Shown here one piece after another: positions 4,039-20,745 of a stretch of DNA of 22,741 bases. The translations under genes were made by a program, and so were the position numbers. The notes beneath the pieces were generated by a model. It searched no databases, was not told where the DNA came from, and saw only the letters and a program-made list of their open reading frames with translations. The DNA comes from a virus, in the IMG/VR virus record IMGVR_UViG_3300024518_003062, positions 1 to 22,741 of that record; one strand, written 5' to 3'. Position 1 is the first letter of the stretch. Each line of letters starts with the position of its first letter.

Positions 4039-4054
4039 ATGCCAAGGAGTGATC

Positions 4055-4384
4055 ATGGACTACGCGAATATATTGACCGAGATCGCCCCGATCTTGGCGA
4101 CCGCCGGCGGTCTGCTTTGGTCGTTCTCGAAGAAGGTGACTAGAATTGAAGCTCAGCTCGCCGCGCTTCAGCACCAGCTCGAAGATATGAAGAACCACAT
4201 CGAGGGGAACCGACAAGGCCGAATCGAAGTCTTTGGAGTCATCAATAATTTGCTCAAAGTCAAAGACAACGAGCTATCTGAGCGCCTCGCTCGGGTCGAG
4301 ACAATCATTGAGAAGGGGATTGATAAAGATACGATCAGGCGACTCGCGACGATCGAGGCCGAGCTCGGGCAGCTGTCGAAATAA
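4055..4384 (+). CDS. Small membrane-anchored coiled-coil protein, first gene of cyclase cassette
   Basis: This 109-residue protein has one hydrophobic segment near the N-terminus (about residues 7-24, ILTEIAPILATAGGLLW), followed by a long heptad-like helix (about 27-52, IEAQLAALQHQLEDM) and a second helical region (72-107). I do not recognise a family. The ATG at 4055 is chosen because AAGGAG ends 5 bases before it. An upstream GTG at 4049 would overlap that site. The stop codon (4382-4384) directly abuts the ATG of the cyclase gene, so the two are almost certainly translated together, and a physical or functional partnership is likely. The layout resembles small phage membrane proteins such as the 80-residue protein at 15935, but no function can be assigned. 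Confidence 0.75.
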   Translation: MDYANILTEIAPILATAGGLLWSFSKKVTRIEAQLAALQHQLEDMKNHIEGNRQGRIEVFGVINNLLKVKDNELSERLARVETIIEKGIDKDTIRRLATIEAELGQLSK

Positions 4385-5170
4385 ATGGAGCGCCAATTCG
4401 CCATCCTCGTCATCATCGACATCGTTGAGTCAACGAAGTTTATCGAGACCGTCGGAGACGTCAAGGCGGCCCAAGCGATGCGTCTTTATGATCGGATCTT
4501 TAGAGGGCTCTTGATTAAATGGTCGGGCGTCGAGATCGACAAGACCGACGGCGCCCTCTTGATCTTCGAGACGATGCGAGAGGCTCTTCAATATGTGACC
4601 GAATATCACAAACTAGTCGAGCATCATCTCGGCCTCAAGAGTCGAGTCGGGATTCATGCCGGTCATGTCATGATGTCGACGAACCATGCTCACTTTGTAA
4701 GCCGAGGAGCCAAGCCCGTCGAAGTCGAGGGAGTTCAAAAGCATATCGCGGCGCGGATCATGAGCCTGGCCGGCCCAGGTCAAACATTGCTATCGAAGAG
4801 GGCGGGCGAGTACGCCTCCTCGGTTCGAGCGGGTCTCATGATCAGAGACATCGGGCAATGGCGACTAAAGGGGGTACGCGCCCCGATCACAGTCTATGTC
4901 ATCTCATGGGATCAAAGCCGAATGAAGCCACCGAAAGAGACATCCAAAGTCAAGCTCATCAAGCCCCCAAAGCTCACGCCCGAGGAGAGGCGCCGTCGCT
5001 TCTTTTGGCGATGGGTCGCGCCTTATCTTGTGTTGATATTGGGTCGGGAGTATCTAATGATTCTTGCGCTCATCGAACAAGCGGGGCTCATCCCATATCT
5101 TTATCTCGATGTCATGTCCCGAGGGGTCAGCGCAATCGTATCATTTATCCACGGGCTCTTTTATTTCTAA
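4385..5170 (+). CDS. Class III adenylate/guanylate cyclase-like protein with C-terminal membrane segments
   Basis: This 261-residue protein has a class III nucleotidyl cyclase catalytic domain at about residues 5-175. Visible motifs are FAILVIIDIVEST with metal-binding D12, EIDKTDGALLIF with D55 as the probable second metal ligand and K53 nearby, LKSRVGIHAGHV (about 84-95), RGAKPVEVEGVQKHIAARIMSLA (107-129) and GPGQTLLS. IDKTDG and AKPVEVEG are, from memory, characteristic of one bacterial branch of this family. The usual transition-state Asn position four before R124 is His120, so activity and product (cAMP, cGMP, cCMP or cUMP) are uncertain. A basic linker is followed by hydrophobic segments at about 207-230 and 237-261, which should anchor it in the inner membrane. 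It follows the 109-residue protein with no gap. Such enzymes generate signal molecules, and in the Pycsar bacterial defence a related cyclase activates membrane or TIR effectors. Confidence 0.85.
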   Translation: MERQFAILVIIDIVESTKFIETVGDVKAAQAMRLYDRIFRGLLIKWSGVEIDKTDGALLIFETMREALQYVTEYHKLVEHHLGLKSRVGIHAGHVMMSTNHAHFVSRGAKPVEVEGVQKHIAARIMSLAGPGQTLLSKRAGEYASSVRAGLMIRDIGQWRLKGVRAPITVYVISWDQSRMKPPKETSKVKLIKPPKLTPEERRRRFFWRWVAPYLVLILGREYLMILALIEQAGLIPYLYLDVMSRGVSAIVSFIHGLFYF

Positions 5171-5335
5171 ACCGGAGGCCGCTTCCGCTTTAGCTTCAGC
5201 CTCAAAGAGCTCCTTGATGATCTGGGTATAAAGTTTAAACGACTCGATAAAGTCATCATGCTCCATGTCGTGGTATGCGTCGGTGATCAGTCGCTTGGCG
5301 AGGGTGACCATCATTAGTGCCTGTTTCTCAGTCAT
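5141..5335 (-). CDS. Small helical protein of unknown function
   Basis: This 64-residue, mostly helical protein begins MTEKQALMMVTLAKRLITDA and is rich in charged residues, with no recognisable motif. The ATG at 5335 is chosen because GGAGA lies about 8 bases upstream and because it overlaps the methyltransferase stop in the sequence ATGACTGA, a coupled arrangement. The frame also runs open upstream to 5392, but that part lies inside the methyltransferase gene. Its 3' end overlaps the oppositely oriented cyclase gene by 30 bases. It is the last gene of the leftward SSB-to-methyltransferase operon. Confidence 0.6.
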   Translation of the reverse strand: MTEKQALMMVTLAKRLITDAYHDMEHDDFIESFKLYTQIIKELFEAEAKAEAASGLEIKEPVDK

Positions 5336-6647
5336 GCTGCTCTCTCCAATTGAAGAGATCGATCTCCTCGCTTTTAGGTTTCGGTGTCTCATAGATTATG
5401 GGGTTGCCTGACCAATGGGCTATCCTCGCCCTTGAGATCTCGACGTATTCAGCCTCGCGCTCGATGCCGATATAGTCGACCCGCTCAAGAGCTGCGGCGC
5501 ACCCCGTCGAGCCTGACCCGTTGAATGGGTCTAAGACGGTTCCGCCCTTGGGCGTGATGAGTCGGATGAGGTATCTCATGAGGTCGATCGGCTTGACTGT
5601 TGGATGTACGTTGGCTCGCATCGGGTGATTTGTCGGGCGATCTGATCGCGTCTCCTCTCCGCTCATCGCGCCCGCCTTCTTGAGGTCGAACCCACCGAGC
5701 CCCGCCTCTCGCTCACCCCTCGACGCCTTGGCGCAATAGAAGAAGCGGGATTGATCGCCGAGGGTGGGGGCGCTCTCTTCATCGAAGATGACGTTGGAGG
5801 GCCATCGCCCACGGTGCTCGCTCCCCTCATAAGCGGTCGTGTCGGCGCCGAGGAACTCGATGGCCCTCGTCCCTCCTCCATGCGTCTTTATTATCTCCTC
5901 GCCGATCCTACATCCATCTATATTAAGCGCCCCTGCACCATACCTCACCACATTCCCCGCGACCGTTCCCTTGATCGGTTTGCGGACTAATAAGCATGGC
6001 TCATAAGCGGGCTTAAGAGCTGTACCCCATCCCTCCCATTGACGGGCTTCATCGGATGCGGGTAGTGTCAAGGGCATCTCGCTCGGCCCATCACTGCTGA
6101 ACGTCACACCGGGAACGACTTTTTTGAAGCCGATGACCTCGCGCTCAACGCCCAAACCCCCATCGATCGCCTTACTCACATTAAGCGATTTGGGAAAGCC
6201 TGTTCCGTAGATCCATTGGATCACATCTCGCATCTCGAACCCCGCGAGCCTCAAAGAGAGCCCCATGAGATCTTGAGATCGTGACGCCGCGAAGACTAAA
6301 GCATGACCGCCGGGCTTAAGGACTCGCATGACCTCGACCCAAAGCGCCGGGGGCGGAACGAAGACATCCCAAGACTTGCCCATGAAGCCGGCGCCCGTTG
6401 GCATATAGTCGAGATCACCTCGACACCATTTAAGCATAACGTCGGCGACTTGGGCGGGCGACAATGCCGACAGCCCATAGGGCGGATCGGTGACGACGGC
6501 GTCGATCGATCCGCTCTCTAAAGACTTTAGCTCGTCAATCGAGTCCCCGTGGATGATCAAAGGGCGCCCCAGTCGTCGAGCTTTTGAATGAGTAGAACAG
6601 TGAAAACGAATACAGCGAAGTGAATCAAAACGAATCCTTTCGGCCAC
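5328..6647 (-). CDS. DNA methyltransferase, N6-adenine/N4-cytosine, beta class
   Basis: This 439-residue protein would transfer a methyl group from S-adenosylmethionine to an exocyclic amino group in DNA. The catalytic motif IV is VVTDPPYG (D54-Y57). The AdoMet-binding motif I, DPFNGSGSTG, comes late (373-382), after HPTVKP (348-353), and this IV-before-I order defines the beta class. The segment GTGFPKSLNVSKAID (about 148-162) is familiar from phage-encoded methylases of the N4/N6 family. The region between (about 180-345) is the probable target-recognition part. No restriction enzyme is adjacent, so a role in protecting phage DNA or in regulation is likelier than a complete restriction system. 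The start is taken as GTG at 6647, overlapping the TerL end by 23 bases with only a weak ribosome site, so the true N-terminus may be shorter. Specificity cannot be read from sequence. Confidence 0.9.
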   Translation of the reverse strand: MAERIRFDSLRCIRFHCSTHSKARRLGRPLIIHGDSIDELKSLESGSIDAVVTDPPYGLSALSPAQVADVMLKWCRGDLDYMPTGAGFMGKSWDVFVPPPALWVEVMRVLKPGGHALVFAASRSQDLMGLSLRLAGFEMRDVIQWIYGTGFPKSLNVSKAIDGGLGVEREVIGFKKVVPGVTFSSDGPSEMPLTLPASDEARQWEGWGTALKPAYEPCLLVRKPIKGTVAGNVVRYGAGALNIDGCRIGEEIIKTHGGGTRAIEFLGADTTAYEGSEHRGRWPSNVIFDEESAPTLGDQSRFFYCAKASRGEREAGLGGFDLKKAGAMSGEETRSDRPTNHPMRANVHPTVKPIDLMRYLIRLITPKGGTVLDPFNGSGSTGCAAALERVDYIGIEREAEYVEISRARIAHWSGNPIIYETPKPKSEEIDLFNWREQHD

Positions 6648-13006: not shown

Positions 13007-13903
13007 ATGTTAAACGATTCTACACTCTCAATCATTCGCAATCTATCGAAAGATGACCGCGATTTTAATGACAACGTCAAGGCCTTCCTCACCTTCGGCC
13101 ACCTCTATCAAGGGAATGTCGCGGTGACCCTTGCGCATACATACATCATCAAGGGTAAGCCGGCGCTCAACGCCGACGCTATGGCCGGTGTCGTCCGTCG
13201 ATACATCGATCCAAACGGCGTCAAGATATGCGCCTACATCCGAATTGTCGAGCACACCGACAAGATCTGCACGATCGCGACGAAGCGCGCCGATGAGCTT
13301 GAATGGGAGTTCGAGCACACTTGGACGTTCACGATCGAGGAGGCCAAGCAGCGAGACTTCTTGAAACAAAAACAATGGCAGACAATGCCGAAGAATATGC
13401 TGCACAAGAGATGCATCACCGCCCTCCTTCGAGTCGCCTATCCTGAGATCATCGGCCAGACATACTCGCCCGACGAGCTCGCCGAGGGGATGATCAAAGA
13501 TGACAAAGAGCGCGATGAGATCATCTTCGCTCAAGTCGGTGATCGCCCGCCGCGTCAAGAGCGTCAACCCTCTCGCCCTCCTCAGCCTCAGCCTAGACCA
13601 CCGGCGCCAAGGCCCGAGCCAAAGCCCGAGCCAAGACCCGAGCCCAAAGCCGATCCCCTCTCTCTCGAAGAGGACGCCATCGCAGCTCTCGAAGCATATG
13701 ATCCCCATTGGCGCAAAGATCCAGGCGACTATGAACGAAGGATGAGAATGACCAAGGCCGAGATGCGAGTCGAGATGGCGCTCCAGGTCTTGCCTCAAGC
13801 TCAACGCGTCGAGCTGTGGAAGCGATACGGCGAGGGCGCTCAGCCTCCGTCCGTCGTCATCGGCGCGACTCCTCAACTCGACATGAACTCAGTCCCATTC
13901 TGA
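13007..13903 (+). CDS. RecT-like single-strand annealing protein
   Basis: This 298-residue protein probably anneals complementary single strands in phage recombination. Residues about 5-165 resemble RecT-type phage recombinases in pattern: AVTLAHTYIIKGKPALNADAMAGVVR, then a beta-rich part ending TWTFTIEEAKQRD, then WQTMPKNMLHKRCITALLR and AYPEIIGQTYSPDELAEG. A proline-rich linker (about 180-216, PEPKPEPRPEPK) joins it to a C-terminal helical part (220-280). The last residues, DMNSVPF, end in PF like the partner-binding tip of bacterial SSB. AAGGA precedes the ATG by about 8 bases. No exonuclease partner is visible nearby. The family call comes from motif resemblance, so it could be another type of annealing protein. 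Confidence 0.7.
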   Translation: MLNDSTLSIIRNLSKDDRDFNDNVKAFLTFGHLYQGNVAVTLAHTYIIKGKPALNADAMAGVVRRYIDPNGVKICAYIRIVEHTDKICTIATKRADELEWEFEHTWTFTIEEAKQRDFLKQKQWQTMPKNMLHKRCITALLRVAYPEIIGQTYSPDELAEGMIKDDKERDEIIFAQVGDRPPRQERQPSRPPQPQPRPPAPRPEPKPEPRPEPKADPLSLEEDAIAALEAYDPHWRKDPGDYERRMRMTKAEMRVEMALQVLPQAQRVELWKRYGEGAQPPSVVIGATPQLDMNSVPF

Positions 13904-13954
13904 TCGACCGCGAGGCGATCGCCCCGCTCACTTTTCAACGCATAAGGAAATACA

Positions 13955-15934
13955 TTGAAAACATTTACCCCTCTCAAAGATAACAATCTAAGCAATACGC
14001 TGGAGCGATTCGCTCGACGAATGCATCCTCAGGTCTGGACAAGAGACCTCATCAAGAACGCCGAGGAAGCCGGCGCGACCACGTTCTCTCTTCGGCGAGA
14101 GTATCGAGCGAACACCATCGGGGCCGCTCGGTTAATCTTCAGCGATGATGGGCGCGGGATGTCGGCCGATGACCTCAAGAAGTACATCGGTCAATGGAAC
14201 TCGTCATCGAAGACTCAAGCCTTCGGTCATCATGATAATTATGGGATCGGCGTCAAGGCGACGACTCTCCCTTGGAATCATTACGGGGTCATCTTCCTGT
14301 CTTGGACATCCAAAGAAGATAAGGGGTCAATGATCTGGCTTCACCGCGACCCTGAGACGAAGCGATACGGGATCAAGCGGATACCTCGATCAGCGCCGGT
14401 GATCGATGACGAGACCGACGCACCGCTCATCGATGATGAGGGCTCGATCGTCCACGACTTGTTCGATGATGTCGTTTGCCTCAATGAACTCTCTTGCGAA
14501 TATCCAGAGGGGTATGACGGCATTAAATGGGCGGCGCTGAAGACTGTCGAGATCAAGGCCGCCGGACATGGGACTTGCGTCATATTGTGCGGCAATGATC
14601 GCGTGTCGCATATATCAAGCAAGCATCCGCACTGGGGGCCCCACAACGCCTCGATCTTTTCATTTATCCGAGACCGCTTTTTTAAACTGGGCATGAGGGG
14701 ATCTTGTATTAGGGACGGTGTTACAGGGAAGCCCACCGCGGTCAGAACATACGACGAGCCCGGCGACGGCTATTGGGAGGACGAGGGGACCATGGATCTA
14801 AGTGTAGACGGTCTGGATTATGGCATCGCCTGGGGCATATCGGACAAGAAGGCGGTGAGCAAAGCGGCAAAGAATCTTTATAAACTTCATAACATGGGAG
14901 GGGCTGTCGTTTATTTCTATGATGGCGAGCTGTATAACCATCAGCCCCAGAAAAACGTGATGAGATCTTGGGGAATTAATCACGACAAGATCATCCCCCG
15001 GGTTAATCTGATCATCTCGATGCCAGTTCGCCAAAAGATCGAAGGCGGCCATCATGTCGGCGTCTATCCTGATGACACTCGATCCCGTCTCCTTTGGGAG
15101 GATACGCGGTCTAACTCTCGGACGCACACGCTCCCGGTCCGCGCACTGAAGCAACACTTTATCGATCATATGCCCGCGCCGATCAAGGCGCTTCTCGATG
15201 AGGCATTCGCAAGCCGAGAGGATCGCGAGTCGAGCATTGATCATAATGAAGTAATTGGCAAGTACGCCCACATCTTCAGAGCTCGCGACCCCCAGAAGAA
15301 AACACTCAAAGCGGTCTGTGATCCCGACGGAGACCTGAGAGTTGAGGAGATTCCGCCCGAGCCCTGGACCCCTGAAACATCGACAGGCTCAAATCGCCCG
15401 ACGAGCTCAGACCCAAAGCCTGCGACCGAAAGCAATGACTCGGCTGACACGCTCTTCGAGACTGGCAATACTCCCGCGAGCGCAAAGAAGGAGAGGGCGC
15501 CGAAGGTCCAGGTCTCTTGCGCCTGGATGCATTATGACTCCAAAGGTGTGAAGGCGAATAGTTCAAGCGCCTTCAGGGGTGAGAGCAAATACACTTTCCC
15601 GTTCTGTTACGCGCCGAGCGCCGGCCGCAAGATCATTCTCGCGAACCTTGATCACATTCACTTTAGATCAACGGTCTCGTACTTCATCAATCAATTCAAG
15701 GACGGAGGCCGCCGTCGAGAGCGTATCACCGAGTTGATTCAAGATGTCTACGAAGCGATCGCCATCGCCAAAGTACAGCACCTCATCGAGCAAACGAAGA
15801 GGGACCGGAAGCGGGACATTATTGAAGAGGCGTCGCTCGCCGCGCTCAATCAAATCATTCTCGGATGCTATCCCGCCTATGAGATCATCGAAGCAAAGAT
15901 CATTAAAGAGCTGAAGCTCTCCCCGATCAGATGA
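13955..15934 (+). CDS. Large GHKL (Bergerat-fold) ATPase of unknown role
   Basis: This 659-residue protein shows the four ATP-binding signatures of the Hsp90/gyrase/MutL/MORC superfamily: N-box RDLIKNAEEAGA (30-41; D31, N35), G1 box SDDGRGM (63-69), G2 box YGIGVKAT (96-103) and GHGT (204-207). No histidine-kinase phosphoacceptor, MutL endonuclease motif or topoisomerase motif is seen. The middle (about 210-460) may be the transducer region. Residues about 475-520 are a Ser/Thr/Pro/Glu-rich linker, and 525-659 form a further domain with helical C-terminus. It may be MORC-like or an Hsp90-like phage protein. The start is TTG at 13955, with AAGGA at 8 bases; the next ATG would remove the start of the ATPase fold. 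It follows the RecT-like gene by 51 bases. Confidence 0.85.
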   Translation: MKTFTPLKDNNLSNTLERFARRMHPQVWTRDLIKNAEEAGATTFSLRREYRANTIGAARLIFSDDGRGMSADDLKKYIGQWNSSSKTQAFGHHDNYGIGVKATTLPWNHYGVIFLSWTSKEDKGSMIWLHRDPETKRYGIKRIPRSAPVIDDETDAPLIDDEGSIVHDLFDDVVCLNELSCEYPEGYDGIKWAALKTVEIKAAGHGTCVILCGNDRVSHISSKHPHWGPHNASIFSFIRDRFFKLGMRGSCIRDGVTGKPTAVRTYDEPGDGYWEDEGTMDLSVDGLDYGIAWGISDKKAVSKAAKNLYKLHNMGGAVVYFYDGELYNHQPQKNVMRSWGINHDKIIPRVNLIISMPVRQKIEGGHHVGVYPDDTRSRLLWEDTRSNSRTHTLPVRALKQHFIDHMPAPIKALLDEAFASREDRESSIDHNEVIGKYAHIFRARDPQKKTLKAVCDPDGDLRVEEIPPEPWTPETSTGSNRPTSSDPKPATESNDSADTLFETGNTPASAKKERAPKVQVSCAWMHYDSKGVKANSSSAFRGESKYTFPFCYAPSAGRKIILANLDHIHFRSTVSYFINQFKDGGRRRERITELIQDVYEAIAIAKVQHLIEQTKRDRKRDIIEEASLAALNQIILGCYPAYEIIEAKIIKELKLSPIR

Positions 15935-16177
15935 TCAATGATTCGTGAGGATCGCCTCAAGCCTCGCGAGCTGCTCCCTGATCTCTGTATATTGCCCATC
16001 GATTGATGTGAAGCGTTGATCAGCGACCGAGGCCCGCGACTCTAAACTCTTGACCTGTTGCTTGAGGCGCCCGAGCTCCTCGCGGTCTCGACCCTTGTCT
16101 CTAAAGTGATCGAGGGCGAGGCCACCGAGGGCGACGATCGTGGTGATGGAGATCATCGTGTTGCCGTCGATTGTCAT
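15935..16177 (-). CDS. Small membrane protein with coiled coil
   Basis: This 80-residue protein has one hydrophobic segment (about 8-23, MISITTIVALGGLALD) followed by a charged helix with heptad pattern (30-77, EELGRLKQQVKSLESRA). GAGGTGA precedes the ATG at 16177. It is the last gene of the right late operon, and its stop codon directly abuts the stop codon of the convergent GHKL gene. Holin-like, spanin-like or other membrane roles are possible. The topology (short N-terminus, one span, long coiled coil) is like an inner-membrane spanin subunit, but it is short for that. Confidence 0.65.
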   Translation of the reverse strand: MTIDGNTMISITTIVALGGLALDHFRDKGRDREELGRLKQQVKSLESRASVADQRFTSIDGQYTEIREQLARLEAILTNH

Positions 16178-17813: not shown

Positions 17814-18250
17814 CGACTTACTTTCCAGAGCAGGATCCGACAGTCGGCGTCGAGCGAAGGGACGCTCGCCCCAATCTCGATCGCGAGGAGTCGGAGGGTT
17901 AAGAGAGATGAGGAGTCAACGCTAAATTCTGCCGTCGCCTCGTCACAATTTCGACCGACATACATATCAGTATTCCCGAGCTCACCGACCGCCGACCCGT
18001 CGAGATAAAATTTAAACTGAACATTATCGCTCGCGGTCGTGCGAGTGAAGCTCGAATATGCTTGAGCCAAATAATGTCCAGCACTCAAATTAATCTCGGT
18101 CGAGTTCGTGATCGCGGGGGAGCTCGGGTATGTATCATCTAACAACGAGACATTATACTCGCCACCGATCGCGGTGATATTGTTCGACCAATTAAACAAA
18201 GCGAGCCTCAAGGTCTTTTGCGCCGTCCCTCCTTGGGCTTTGTAACTCAT
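17810..18250 (-). CDS. Small virion protein downstream of the fibre gene (first of three)
   Basis: This 146-residue protein begins MSYKAQGGTAQKTLRLALFNW and appears to be an all-beta domain (GHYLAQAYSSFTRTTASDNVQF, then SSSLLTLRLLAIEIG) ending ADCRILLWKVSR. Such compact beta-sandwich proteins after a fibre gene often form fibre tips or bind receptors; that is inference. The start overlaps the fibre stop as ATGA, so its amount is probably coupled to that of the fibre. Confidence 0.65.
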   Translation of the reverse strand: MSYKAQGGTAQKTLRLALFNWSNNITAIGGEYNVSLLDDTYPSSPAITNSTEINLSAGHYLAQAYSSFTRTTASDNVQFKFYLDGSAVGELGNTDMYVGRNCDEATAEFSVDSSSLLTLRLLAIEIGASVPSLDADCRILLWKVSR

Positions 18251-20745
18251 ATCAAAATCCAGTTCGCATTATCGCTCTGAAGCGTGATCGAATCATATTG
18301 GGCGCCGATTGCAAACGTAGACTGGCCCACATAGTCAATGTATTCAGTGCCGTTGGGATCGACTGTCACCGCTGCGCTCGTGAGTCTTTTGATTTGGAGC
18401 TTGAATCCCGATAGCCCAACGGCTGTTGGGAGGTTGATGGTTCCCGCGCCGGTTGATGCGGTGTAGGTGCGCTCAAGCTCGCTCGCGCCGATCGCTCCGT
18501 CGGTCGTGCCGACGGTGTAGGGGGTCGCGGTGATGTCGGTCACCGTCGGTCGAGATCCGCCACCACCGGCGGCCGCCTCAGCTCCCCATGAAGTCGAGGA
18601 GTGATCATAGGTTAGGACATAGTTGTCGATACCCGCGCCGGCTGTATACGCGACATCTGAGAGCGTCGACATCGGGAGAGTCGCGACCTGGAGGTCGACT
18701 CGGCCCGTCGTATAGTAAAGGTTTGTCACCTCGCCGACTGTCGCTGTCGTCAAGTTCTGATTAAATGACGCGAGGCCGACCGCTGAGAGCGCCGTCGAGA
18801 CAGCCTGATTTGACCCATCACCCAAGAAGATCTTATCAGTGTCGAGGTTCGGTGTCGCGGCTGATCGACCCGCCCCGCCGACTTTAATAATTCCCGCGCT
18901 CGCGTCCGCTCGTACGACCCGCCCGATGTTTTGGATGAGATTCGATTCGCCTGTTGGCGCTGTGTTCGTGAGAGCTCCGGCGGTGGCGCTTGATACATAA
19001 ACAGTATCGCCGACGCTTAGGCTCCATGTCGTCGTGTTGACGTCGTTGAGATTCCCGAGGGTGATGATCGTCACCTCGGCTTGATCGTTCGCGTTTGCAT
19101 GAACTAGGCCGAAGGCGGGCATCGTCAAGGCGCTATTAGAGCGAGCGAGATCGACGGTCGGCACCGATCCAGAGATCCCTTTGATATATACGACTTGACC
19201 CTTGGTCATTAGGCCGCCTGAGTCGTTCTTAGCTTTGAATCTGATCGCGCCGTTGATGTCGGTCCAGCTCGTCAAGTATCGGAGCGCCTCAGCCCCGATC
19301 GTTCGCGTGAGGTCGGCGTCGGGCTCGACCGAGCCGGTGGTCTTAATGATCCCCGTCCCGTTCGGTGCGATGGTGATGTCTCCGTTTGAGACACTGACAA
19401 TCGACTGACCGTTAACATCGAGCGAGCCGCCGAGCTGCGGGGTCGTGTCATCAACGACAGCGGCGAGACCTCCCGAAGGTAAGCCCGTAAGGTTTGAGCC
19501 GTCAATAGCTGAGAAGCCGGCGACGCCACCGCCGACATCGATCAAGATCGGGATGTCACCGACTGCCGTCCCCGTATCCTCATTCGCTGCGGTCCCCGTC
19601 GCCTGATCGAAGATGTACCACGCCGACCCATTCCATCGGATCGTTAGCATCTGATAATTATTGTCGATTGTCACGCTTGTGGCTTGCGTCGTCCCATAGT
19701 TTACAATCGTTCCCGCGTCCCCTGAATCTTGAGCAATAACGAGCTCACCTGCGCGAATGCGAGTGACGACAAGAGTGTCGCCGTCGGTTACGGTAGAGCC
19801 CAAAGGGAGGTTGACCGTCACCGATGTCGCGCCGAGTGCTGTAATCCAGTATGCTCGATTAATTGTTGCGGTAATGGGGGTTGAGGATGTCGTAAAAACA
19901 TCAAGGCCGGTGAAGGGTAGATTAGTCAGTTGAGATCCATCGACGGCGGGGATCTTGGCCGCTACGTCGAGCTGGAGAATCTTGCTTGCAGTTGTGCCTA
20001 CATCAACGTTTAGGGTTGAAGTCGCGCCGGTTCCCGAGAGGGTCAACGCCGTTCCATCGATGTTTAAGACTGAGTTATCTGCGTAGATAGTTACGGGGCC
20101 AGTCTGTGCATTCACTGATGTTACTGGGGCTGTGGCTGGGGTGACCGCCTGCCACTCTGATGAGGCATTGACCCAGGTCAATACATCCCCATCAATACCT
20201 GGGCCTGCTGTATAACTCGCATCTGATAGAGTGCTGAGAGGCAACGTGCCCACCTCTGTATCTACCCTAGCATCTGTATAATAAAGGTTCGTGTTCTCTG
20301 CGATATTTGAAGAGTCGAGAACCACTGGGCCGGTGAAAGTGTTGACTGATGTGACTGCGTCTGTGTTGTCGAACTTATCAATTTTGGCGTTGTCGACCAC
20401 GCCGCCCATATCTGCATTGATCACCAGGGCATCATTAAGCGCCCAAGTTTTACCGTAGATTGTACCCGCTACCGAGATCCGGTAGAAGTCGCCTTTAAGA
20501 CCATTCGAGATGTCAGGCGTTGTGGGCTGACTAGCATCCAAAGCGCCCTTGTAGTCAAAGAGCCCCAGTACTGCAGCGCCTATCTCATCAGCCACTGTTT
20601 TGGGGGTCATGGCTATTAGGTCATTTGTGCCAGTGGTGGCCTCCGCTGATGTTGCGATTCTGATCTTTCCCTTTACAGTCTCTGACGCGTCTGGGACTGA
20701 TGCACCGCCGCCGCCGCCGGTGAACCCTTGAAATTTAATGCTCAT
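18247..20745 (-). CDS. Large tail fibre protein with internal repeats
   Basis: This 832-residue, low-charge, Thr/Gly/Asp-rich protein would form a trimeric fibre for host binding. The N-terminus (MSIKFQGFTGGGGGASVPDA) may attach to the virion. Internal repeats include VTSVNTFTGPVV (about 135) and VTSVNAQTGPVT (about 212), ENTNLYYTDARVDTEVGTLP (about 155) and NLYYTTGRVDLQVATLP (about 680), STLSDASYTAGPGIDGDVL and STLSDVAYTAGAGIDNYVL, and DGSQLTNLP and DGSNLTGLP; these are common in phage fibres. The C-terminus (from about 750) is a probable beta-rich end. AGGAG precedes the ATG at 20745. The first third has a base and codon style unlike the rest (see findings). Confidence 0.85.
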   Translation of the reverse strand: MSIKFQGFTGGGGGASVPDASETVKGKIRIATSAEATTGTNDLIAMTPKTVADEIGAAVLGLFDYKGALDASQPTTPDISNGLKGDFYRISVAGTIYGKTWALNDALVINADMGGVVDNAKIDKFDNTDAVTSVNTFTGPVVLDSSNIAENTNLYYTDARVDTEVGTLPLSTLSDASYTAGPGIDGDVLTWVNASSEWQAVTPATAPVTSVNAQTGPVTIYADNSVLNIDGTALTLSGTGATSTLNVDVGTTASKILQLDVAAKIPAVDGSQLTNLPFTGLDVFTTSSTPITATINRAYWITALGATSVTVNLPLGSTVTDGDTLVVTRIRAGELVIAQDSGDAGTIVNYGTTQATSVTIDNNYQMLTIRWNGSAWYIFDQATGTAANEDTGTAVGDIPILIDVGGGVAGFSAIDGSNLTGLPSGGLAAVVDDTTPQLGGSLDVNGQSIVSVSNGDITIAPNGTGIIKTTGSVEPDADLTRTIGAEALRYLTSWTDINGAIRFKAKNDSGGLMTKGQVVYIKGISGSVPTVDLARSNSALTMPAFGLVHANANDQAEVTIITLGNLNDVNTTTWSLSVGDTVYVSSATAGALTNTAPTGESNLIQNIGRVVRADASAGIIKVGGAGRSAATPNLDTDKIFLGDGSNQAVSTALSAVGLASFNQNLTTATVGEVTNLYYTTGRVDLQVATLPMSTLSDVAYTAGAGIDNYVLTYDHSSTSWGAEAAAGGGGSRPTVTDITATPYTVGTTDGAIGASELERTYTASTGAGTINLPTAVGLSGFKLQIKRLTSAAVTVDPNGTEYIDYVGQSTFAIGAQYDSITLQSDNANWILI

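What the first reader, a model, noticed from the sequence alone, without database searches (positions are those of the whole stretch)
13955..15934. Large GHKL ATPase encoded in the phage early/recombination block
All four ATP-binding boxes are present but no kinase, MutL-endonuclease or topoisomerase signature follows. A 659-residue Bergerat-fold protein next to a RecT-like gene has no standard place in phage replication modules. A MORC-like DNA compaction role, a chaperone role or counter-defence are all open.
Basis: partly seen in the sequence, partly recalled or inferred. Interest (0 to 1): 0.65.

Follow-up and report, generated by a model that had tools for sequence, protein, structure and literature searches.

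The report
Swappable MORC-like ATPase gene in phages
A phage carries a large energy-driven protein built like the MORC family of DNA-handling ATPases, on a single gene that close relatives of the phage lack or replace with other genes, which suggests a weapon or shield used in conflicts with hosts or rival phages rather than a part of the basic replication machinery.

Summary
In detail: window 13955-15934 (+) encodes a 659-residue GHKL ATPase, with a TTG start behind a ribosome-binding site matching that of the RecT-like gene upstream. One nuance: the catalytic Glu of the N-box is Asp31 here; the other 41 of 42 aligned sequences have Glu. The predicted fold of residues 8-416 is a GHKL + S5 module, nearest to MORC3/MORC4 (Z 17.9/17.7), then Hsp90 and MutL. 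The C-terminal 145 residues fold confidently on their own (pLDDT 86.5) but match nothing clearly in PDB or BFVD. The protein belongs to an uncatalogued family found in metagenomic phages and in bacterial islands. In this phage lineage it is an accessory cassette. Related contigs differ by precise loss, gain or replacement of this one gene, at two sites (after recT; between the terminase genes). These sites otherwise hold HNH, methyltransferase, T5orf172-type or other genes, or nothing. A core role in RecT recombination or packaging is therefore unlikely. My best reading is an ATP-driven dimeric clamp acting on DNA or DNA-protein complexes in phage-host or phage-phage conflict. The conflict role is inferred; nothing here tests it biochemically. 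New variant of a known kind (paraMORC-like).

The parts
13955..15934 (+). GHKL-S5 ATPase gene, 659 aa, TTG start
   Evidence: ORF; Pfam HATPase_c_3 1.2e-7; fold MORC3 Z 17.9 over 306 residues
14036..14269 (+). ATP-binding core, residues 28-105 (N-box D31/N35, G1 D64-G68, G2 N95-K101)
14570..15217 (+). rest of GHKL and S5-like transducer part, residues 206-421, with invariant E325 and R376 (R376 is a candidate for the S5 basic finger; inferred)
   Evidence: fold match to residue 416; columns invariant in 42 of 42
15263..15496 (+). linker, residues 437-514, predicted disordered
   Evidence: pLDDT under 50 over 436-517
15497..15931 (+). C-terminal domain, residues 515-659, small sheet and helices, no clear solved match
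   Evidence: model pLDDT 86.5, pTM 0.81; best VIA Z 3.9; best Foldseek E 0.39 PDB, 0.041 BFVD
13940..13948 (+). GCATAAGGA ribosome-binding element before the TTG start
   Evidence: same element and spacing before recT ATG
13900..15949 (.). stretch absent from two sister phages (present/absent cassette, about 2.05 kb)
   Evidence: alignments end at 13899 and resume at 15950 in L136 and L138
13007..13903 (+). RecT-like annealase gene, upstream border of the cassette
   Evidence: Pfam RecT 3.6e-7; phrog_561 1.3e-12
15935..16177 (-). 80-aa convergent gene (coiled-coil-like), downstream border of the cassette
   Evidence: only weak coiled-coil Pfam hits

Best explanation
An accessory phage cassette gene for a three-part ATPase: an N-terminal GHKL domain, an S5-like transducer, and after a disordered linker a C-terminal domain of unrecognised fold. 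By analogy with MORC, MutL and Hsp90 (established knowledge) it most likely dimerises on ATP binding, closing as a clamp on DNA or a DNA-protein complex, with the C-terminal domain choosing the target. Its most likely use is conflict: blocking a host defence, or shutting out a rival phage. Shown: a real gene, domain layout, MORC-like predicted fold, purifying selection, exact presence/absence, sharing of slots with HNH and methyltransferase genes. Inferred: dimer clamp, DNA as substrate, conflict role. Not resolved: counter-defence versus rival exclusion.
For: Fold: MORC3 Z 17.9 and MORC4 Z 17.7 lead, with MORC2 at 15.3-15.9 among Hsp90 (16.0) and MutL (15.0) rows; sequence search finds MORC2 first. 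Accessory: 6 of 30 long records of this phage lineage carry it (leaving out two of 32 that were fetched by the GHKL query itself); in the RecT scan 7 of 53 after-recT sites, in the TerL scan 6 of 49 TerS-TerL sites. Exact presence/absence or swap in four settings: window versus L136 and L138; L187 versus L188; L189 versus L147; L019 versus L203, where it is replaced by a MUG113/T5orf172-like gene and an HNH-cluster gene. On the protein tree each of the two main slots needs at least two changes. Slots otherwise hold HNH, N4/N6 methyltransferase, MUG113/T5orf172-type or ParB-like genes. Bacterial relatives lie next to GajA-GajB in named plasmids; 6 of 115 nearby bacterial proteins match a GajA model. 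Iyer et al. 2008 (PMC2292703, parts 1-3 of 4 read) report MORC/paraMORC ATPases mainly in restriction-modification operons.
Against: No assay and no direct link to any defence target. The window copy has Asp at the usual catalytic Glu and may hydrolyse ATP slowly. The phage loci lack the SFII helicase operon typical of prokaryotic MORCs. PADLOC-DB has no model for the family: 0 for the window, and only weak TmtA (11 members) and MzaB (4) matches among 42. GajAB adjacency could be mere island co-location, and no background rate was measured. Accessory genes can also serve regulation or a particular host. The full model is only moderately confident (mean pLDDT 65.6).
Confidence: 0.5

Rival explanations
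1. Helper of phage recombination or packaging: a MutL/topoisomerase-like ATPase that works with the RecT-like annealase or with the terminase, its two commonest neighbours.
For: Adjacent to and co-directional with recT or terminase genes in the phage loci; GHKL-S5 modules of MutL and topoisomerases act on DNA (established).
Against: Sister phages keep recT, SSB, TerS and TerL and lose only this gene at this site; most sampled relatives lack it; it changes neighbours between three positions.
Confidence: 0.15
2. MORC-like silencer or compactor: it binds and condenses host or competitor DNA to silence transcription, without a link to a particular defence system.
For: MORC is the best structural match; the C-terminal domain is separate and could bind DNA (inference).
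Against: The MORC-specific S5 motif as worded by Iyer et al. was found in 0 of 42 members; no evidence on DNA binding.
Confidence: 0.15
3. Hsp90-like chaperone for phage or host proteins.
For: Hsp90 structures score Z up to 16.0; HSP90 NCBIfam models match some relatives.
Against: No HSP90 model matches the window protein at 1e-3; sequence similarity is confined to the ATP core; the C-terminal domain shows no clear HtpG-like match (1sf8, Z 2.4).
Confidence: 0.08
4. A distant rIIA-type protein (T4 exclusion-escape gene) without an rIIB partner.
For: rIIA also has an N-terminal GHKL domain with a variable C-terminus and is called a counter-defence factor (PMC7824862, passages); weak structural hits to RIIA and sequence hits to Rhodococcus phage rIIA-like genes.
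Against: Profile alignment with T4 rIIA covers 72 columns of the ATP core only, with Peregrin gp116 77 columns, against 562 columns for a family member; no rIIB-sized gene follows it in the window.
Confidence: 0.05
5. Near-neutral hitch-hiking cargo tolerated in an insertion hotspot.
For: The slots are often empty and also carry HNH genes that may be selfish.
Against: dN/dS 0.08-0.37 in 10 pairs and intact full-length frames.
Confidence: 0.05

Closest known systems
paraMORC families (Iyer, Abhiman & Aravind 2008, PMC2292703)
   Same: N-terminal GHKL plus S5-like module, no MORC-specific S5 motif, own C-terminal extension, mobile-element distribution
   Different: Single-gene phage cassette without SFII helicase; C-terminal domain not recognised as RE-fold, TIR or any solved fold; own motif P-x(2-4)-R-x2-L in the S5 part. 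Whether it equals one of paraMORC1-5 could not be tested: their sequences were not in hand
Eukaryotic MORC2/MORC3/MORC4 ATPase modules
   Same: Best fold match (Z 15-18) and best PDB sequence match
   Different: MORC S5 motif not found; different C-terminal part; phage gene
T4 rIIA-type phage proteins
   Same: Phage-encoded, N-terminal GHKL, variable C-terminus, conflict role proposed in print
   Different: Homology limited to 72-77 columns of the ATP core; no rIIB partner
GHKL-Shedu VcSduA (paraMORC3; PMC12137116, passages read)
   Same: GHKL ATPase with middle domain used in phage conflict
   Different: VcSduA carries a C-terminal DUF4263 nuclease and is a host defence; no nuclease model matches here
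MutL and Hsp90/HtpG
   Same: GHKL-S5 fold
   Different: No MutL or Hsp90 family model matches the window protein at 1e-3; C-terminal domain without clear match

Membership tests
GHKL ATPase superfamily | N-box Asn, G1 DxGxG, G2 GxGxK-type loop, GT box | tested here: met
   N35, G66, G68, G97, G99 invariant in 42 of 42; K101 in 40, T207 in 38; D64 in 31 (Asn in 11, window Asp); Pfam 1.2e-7
GHKL ATPase superfamily | catalytic Glu in N-box | tested here: inconclusive
   Glu in 41 of 42, Asp31 in the window; activity of the Asp form not testable here
MORC | GHKL domain followed by S5-fold domain | tested here: met
   model residues 8-416 on MORC3 5ix2, Z 17.9, rmsd 4.3, 306 aligned; predicted model only
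MORC | S5 motif GhXhhpXXRhl that unifies MORCs (PMC2292703) | tested here: not met
   regular expression found 0 of 42; no MORC sequence was run as positive control
paraMORC | GHKL + S5 module without the MORC motif | tested here: met
paraMORC | restriction-modification operon with SFII helicase or nuclease | tested here: not met
   neighbours in the phage loci are recT, RNR, TerS, TerL, SSB and small genes; no helicase among the labelled neighbours. The window methyltransferase lies about 7 kb away
paraMORC | sequence membership of one of paraMORC1-5 | not testable with these tools
   family sequences or models not held; Pfam and NCBIfam give only superfamily hits
rIIA | homology to T4 rIIA beyond the ATP core | tested here: not met
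   72 columns aligned, residues 27-103 only
rIIA | adjacent rIIB gene | tested here: not met
   recT upstream, 80-aa convergent gene downstream
MutL | C-terminal dimerisation/endonuclease domain | tested here: inconclusive
   no MutL model for the window at 1e-3, though 17 of 42 members match TIGR00585; C-terminal domain without clear match
Hsp90 | Hsp90 family middle and C-terminal domains | tested here: inconclusive
   N-terminal and S5 part Z up to 16.0; no HSP90 model for the window; HtpG C-domain Z 2.4
Topoisomerase VI/II or histidine kinase | Toprim, or HisKA/dimerisation domain | tested here: not met
   only HATPase models in Pfam
Known anti-phage defence protein (PADLOC-DB 2.0.0) | match to a defence model | tested here: not met
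   0 for the window; 11 of 42 members match TmtA, best 2.4e-7, 4 of 42 match MzaB

The most novel reading that the evidence does not exclude
This is the phage branch of an undescribed GHKL-S5 conflict ATPase family with its own new C-terminal domain. It moves as a one-gene cassette through two insertion hotspots of an environmental phage lineage and is shared with alphaproteobacterial mobile islands, where it pairs with a small helical protein and sometimes rides beside Gabija. It acts as an ATP-driven clamp that silences or blocks foreign DNA, or blocks the host machinery that would destroy the phage: a virus-borne MORC-like weapon.
Probability: 0.3. Interest if true: 0.75.

Novelty: new variant of a known kind. 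Interest (0 to 1): 0.52.

Why it matters
MORC-type ATPases silence transposons in animals and plants and are thought to descend from prokaryotic conflict systems. A MORC-like ATPase carried by phages as a gain-or-loss cassette, with closely related phages that lack it, gives a natural with/without pair for asking what such ATPases do in a simple setting. The family has no specific PHROGs, PADLOC, Pfam or NCBIfam model in the copies searched, so surveys that rely on these would overlook it.

Tried and rejected
Rejected: a fixed replication-module gene (first thought, where all loci carried the gene because they had been fetched with it). Rescanning with RecT and TerL alignments showed that most relatives lack it. 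Rejected: rIIA membership. Rejected: a strict partnership with the PD-(D/E)xK-like neighbours. They co-occur in some loci only, and their nuclease identity rests on a D...ExK pattern that 237 of 656 other proteins of 200-400 aa also show; profiles of two of these clusters found no relevant PDB match. I therefore use those labels (PDExK10, 18, 45, 68, 172) as names, not as findings.

Led nowhere: tblastn in the phage collection (none at 0.01; six weak at 10); PHROGs (nothing relevant among 42 members); Rfam and tRNAs in the window (none); promoter/terminator scan (promoter-like sites 8 against a shuffled mean of 3.1, none placed just before the ATPase gene; terminator-like sites at background). 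The C-terminal domain has no clear match in the libraries searched, which does not show that the fold is new.

Limits of counts: slot tallies come from my own crude gene calling and de-duplication (same content plus contained anchor protein), so some contigs may be counted twice, and each scan kept only the best 80 loci (334 TerL and 176 RecT relatives were found). The 32 records were picked by me for length from the loci then in hand. On the tree the window is a long branch (1.66), so its exact place is unsure.

Full report
The gene. The window is a fragment of a virus record. Frame 13955-15934 (+) encodes 659 residues from a TTG start. GCATAAGGA precedes this TTG and the recT ATG at the same 6-nt distance. 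The stop codon abuts the stop of a convergent 80-aa gene (15935-16177). Pfam gives HATPase_c_3 over residues 30-105 at 1.2e-7; PHROGs and PADLOC give nothing; PDB sequence search gives MORC2 first, 4.1e-6, and a family profile again gives MORC2 first, 5.7e-8, then MutL and Hsp90.

The family. Two other IMG/VR contigs encode the identical protein. Plasmid tblastn found a relative in Caballeronia that aligns to the viral profile over 562 columns, E 2.9e-48, without having been in that profile. It also found alphaproteobacterial plasmid relatives, one aligning over 355 columns, E 6.5e-24. A scan of viral contigs with that small alignment gave 24 further loci; one scan of bacterial genomes gave 21. 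A 42-member alignment (window, 26 viral, 15 bacterial) keeps R30, N35, G66, G68, N95, G97, G99, G111, G213, E325 and R376 invariant. Position 31 is Glu in 41 and Asp in the window; position 64 is Asp in 31 and Asn in 11. The 42 match only superfamily-level or general GHKL models in Pfam (33 HATPase_c_3) and NCBIfam, and none matches a relevant PHROG. Ten pairs give dN/dS 0.08-0.37.

Structure. The full model (pLDDT 65.6, 15 sequences) matches MORC3 (5ix2, Z 17.9, 4.3 A, 306 residues, model 8-416) and MORC4 (Z 17.7). Hsp90 follows at 16.0, MORC2 at 15.9 and MutL at 15.0; MORC2, Hsp90 and MutL rows are close to tied. So residues 8-416 are a GHKL + S5 module. The MORC S5 motif given by Iyer et al. 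2008 (PMC2292703; parts 1-3 of 4 read) was found in 0 of 42; 38 of 42 instead show P-x(2-4)-R-x2-L in the region of the invariant R376. No positive control was run for the MORC pattern. R376 may be the basic finger that S5 domains supply, an inference. The C-terminal 145 residues, predicted alone from 38 sequences, reach pLDDT 86.5 and pTM 0.81 but have no clear match: best Z 3.9, best Foldseek E 0.39 in PDB and 0.041 in BFVD.

Where it sits. In my gene calls the phage loci share RepO-, DnaC-, SSB-, TerS-, TerL-, portal-, ThyX- and RNR-type genes in conserved order. Names rest on Pfam/PHROGs for window genes and ThyX; SSB and RNR are my reading of the sequences. The ATPase gene stands directly after recT, or between TerS and TerL, or near SSB-TerS (one search counts the neighbours). 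To avoid the bias of having fetched loci by this gene, I scanned with TerL and RecT alignments (best 80 kept each). Of 32 long records searched whole, 8 carry it; two of these were fetched by the ATPase query, so 6 of 30 is the fairer figure. In the RecT scan 7 of 53 de-duplicated after-recT sites hold it, 36 are empty and 10 hold other cargo; in the TerL scan 6 of 49 TerS-TerL sites hold it.

Exact presence and absence. Sister contigs L136 and L138 align to the window up to 13899 and again from 15950, at 83-90% identity beside the gap, with 15 bp between. L187 and L188 (94-95% identical flanks) differ by the same gene after recT, with 9 bp left in L188. L189 and L147 (81%) differ by it between TerS and TerL, with 137 bp left in L147. 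L019 carries it where L203, with 92-95% identical flanks, carries a MUG113/T5orf172-like gene (just under Pfam's cut-off) and a member of the HNH cluster (the HNH name rests on another member, L143). Across de-duplicated loci the after-recT slot holds nothing (36), this gene (9), HNH (4), a methyltransferase (1) or other (6) of 56; the TerS-TerL slot holds D...ExK-pattern proteins (43), other (14), this gene alone (7) or with such a protein (3), HNH (3), ParB/T5orf types (2) or nothing (4) of 76 (which includes loci fetched by the ATPase). On the protein tree each slot needs at least two changes that well-supported branches force, so the position was probably taken more than once.

Bacterial relatives. 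In Dinoroseobacter and Agrobacterium plasmids a 621-aa relative lies just upstream of GajA and a UvrD-type (GajB) gene, in Dinoroseobacter with one gene between. Of 115 proteins near 24 bacterial relatives, 6 match a GajA model at 1e-10. No background rate was measured, so this is a hint only.

What it most likely does. A gene that close relatives lack without losing recT, SSB or terminase genes is unlikely to be needed for replication or packaging in general. Genes that swap with it include HNH, methyltransferase and T5orf172-like families, typical of conflict and selfish cargo (recalled). GHKL-S5 proteins of this build are reported mainly from restriction-modification operons (PMC2292703), and a GHKL-Shedu protein protects Vibrio from phages (PMC12137116, passages). 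T4 rIIA, another phage GHKL protein, is described as a poorly understood counter-defence factor (PMC7824862, passages). I therefore commit to an ATP-gated dimeric clamp used in conflict, at about 0.5, without deciding between counter-defence and exclusion of rivals. Other readings are listed as rivals.

Literature. Searches for MORC/GHKL/phage/prokaryotic, the MutL/MORC title, GHKL with anti-phage terms, paraMORC, phage-encoded with GHKL/anti-defence and rIIA with GHKL listed no paper that describes this phage family, judged from titles and abstract starts. The library holds open-licence papers only.

Noticed in passing
window 4385-5170 (+), with 4049-4384 (+) just upstream; L030 15813-16694 (-): A 261-aa protein with a class III nucleotide cyclase domain (PDB 1ybt 1.3e-10) followed by hydrophobic segments, next to a small ORF with a hydrophobic N-terminus. 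L030, another ATPase-carrying contig, also has such a cyclase (5.6e-11). A Pycsar-like cyclase plus membrane effector is conceivable (recalled, not tested).
   Followed up: partly
L037-L039, L041, L042, L044, L047 among others; ORF directly upstream of the 621-aa relative: In Alphaproteobacteria a 75-95 aa helical ORF stands directly upstream of the GHKL relative (cluster 8, 13 loci), in some loci near ParB-like and DUF932 genes with variable cargo: possibly an untested two-gene conflict system. 11 of the 42 aligned members have Asn for the G1 Asp.
   Followed up: partly
TerS-TerL slot in many loci, e.g. L012 885-1784, L025 3486-4397, L151 3946-4974: Several 240-350 aa clusters with a D...ExK pattern occupy the same slot between the terminase genes; Pfam and PDB searches found no convincing family for those tested.
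   Followed up: partly
window 5328-6647 (-): A DNA methyltransferase gene (N6_N4_Mtase 6e-26) between TerL and portal; its presence between these genes also varies among relatives.
   Followed up: no
L138 4679-6203, L188 7933-9900 against window 19912-20135 and L187: Many short secondary alignments inside the large gene at window 18247-20745 suggest repeated, reshuffled modules between relatives.
   Followed up: no
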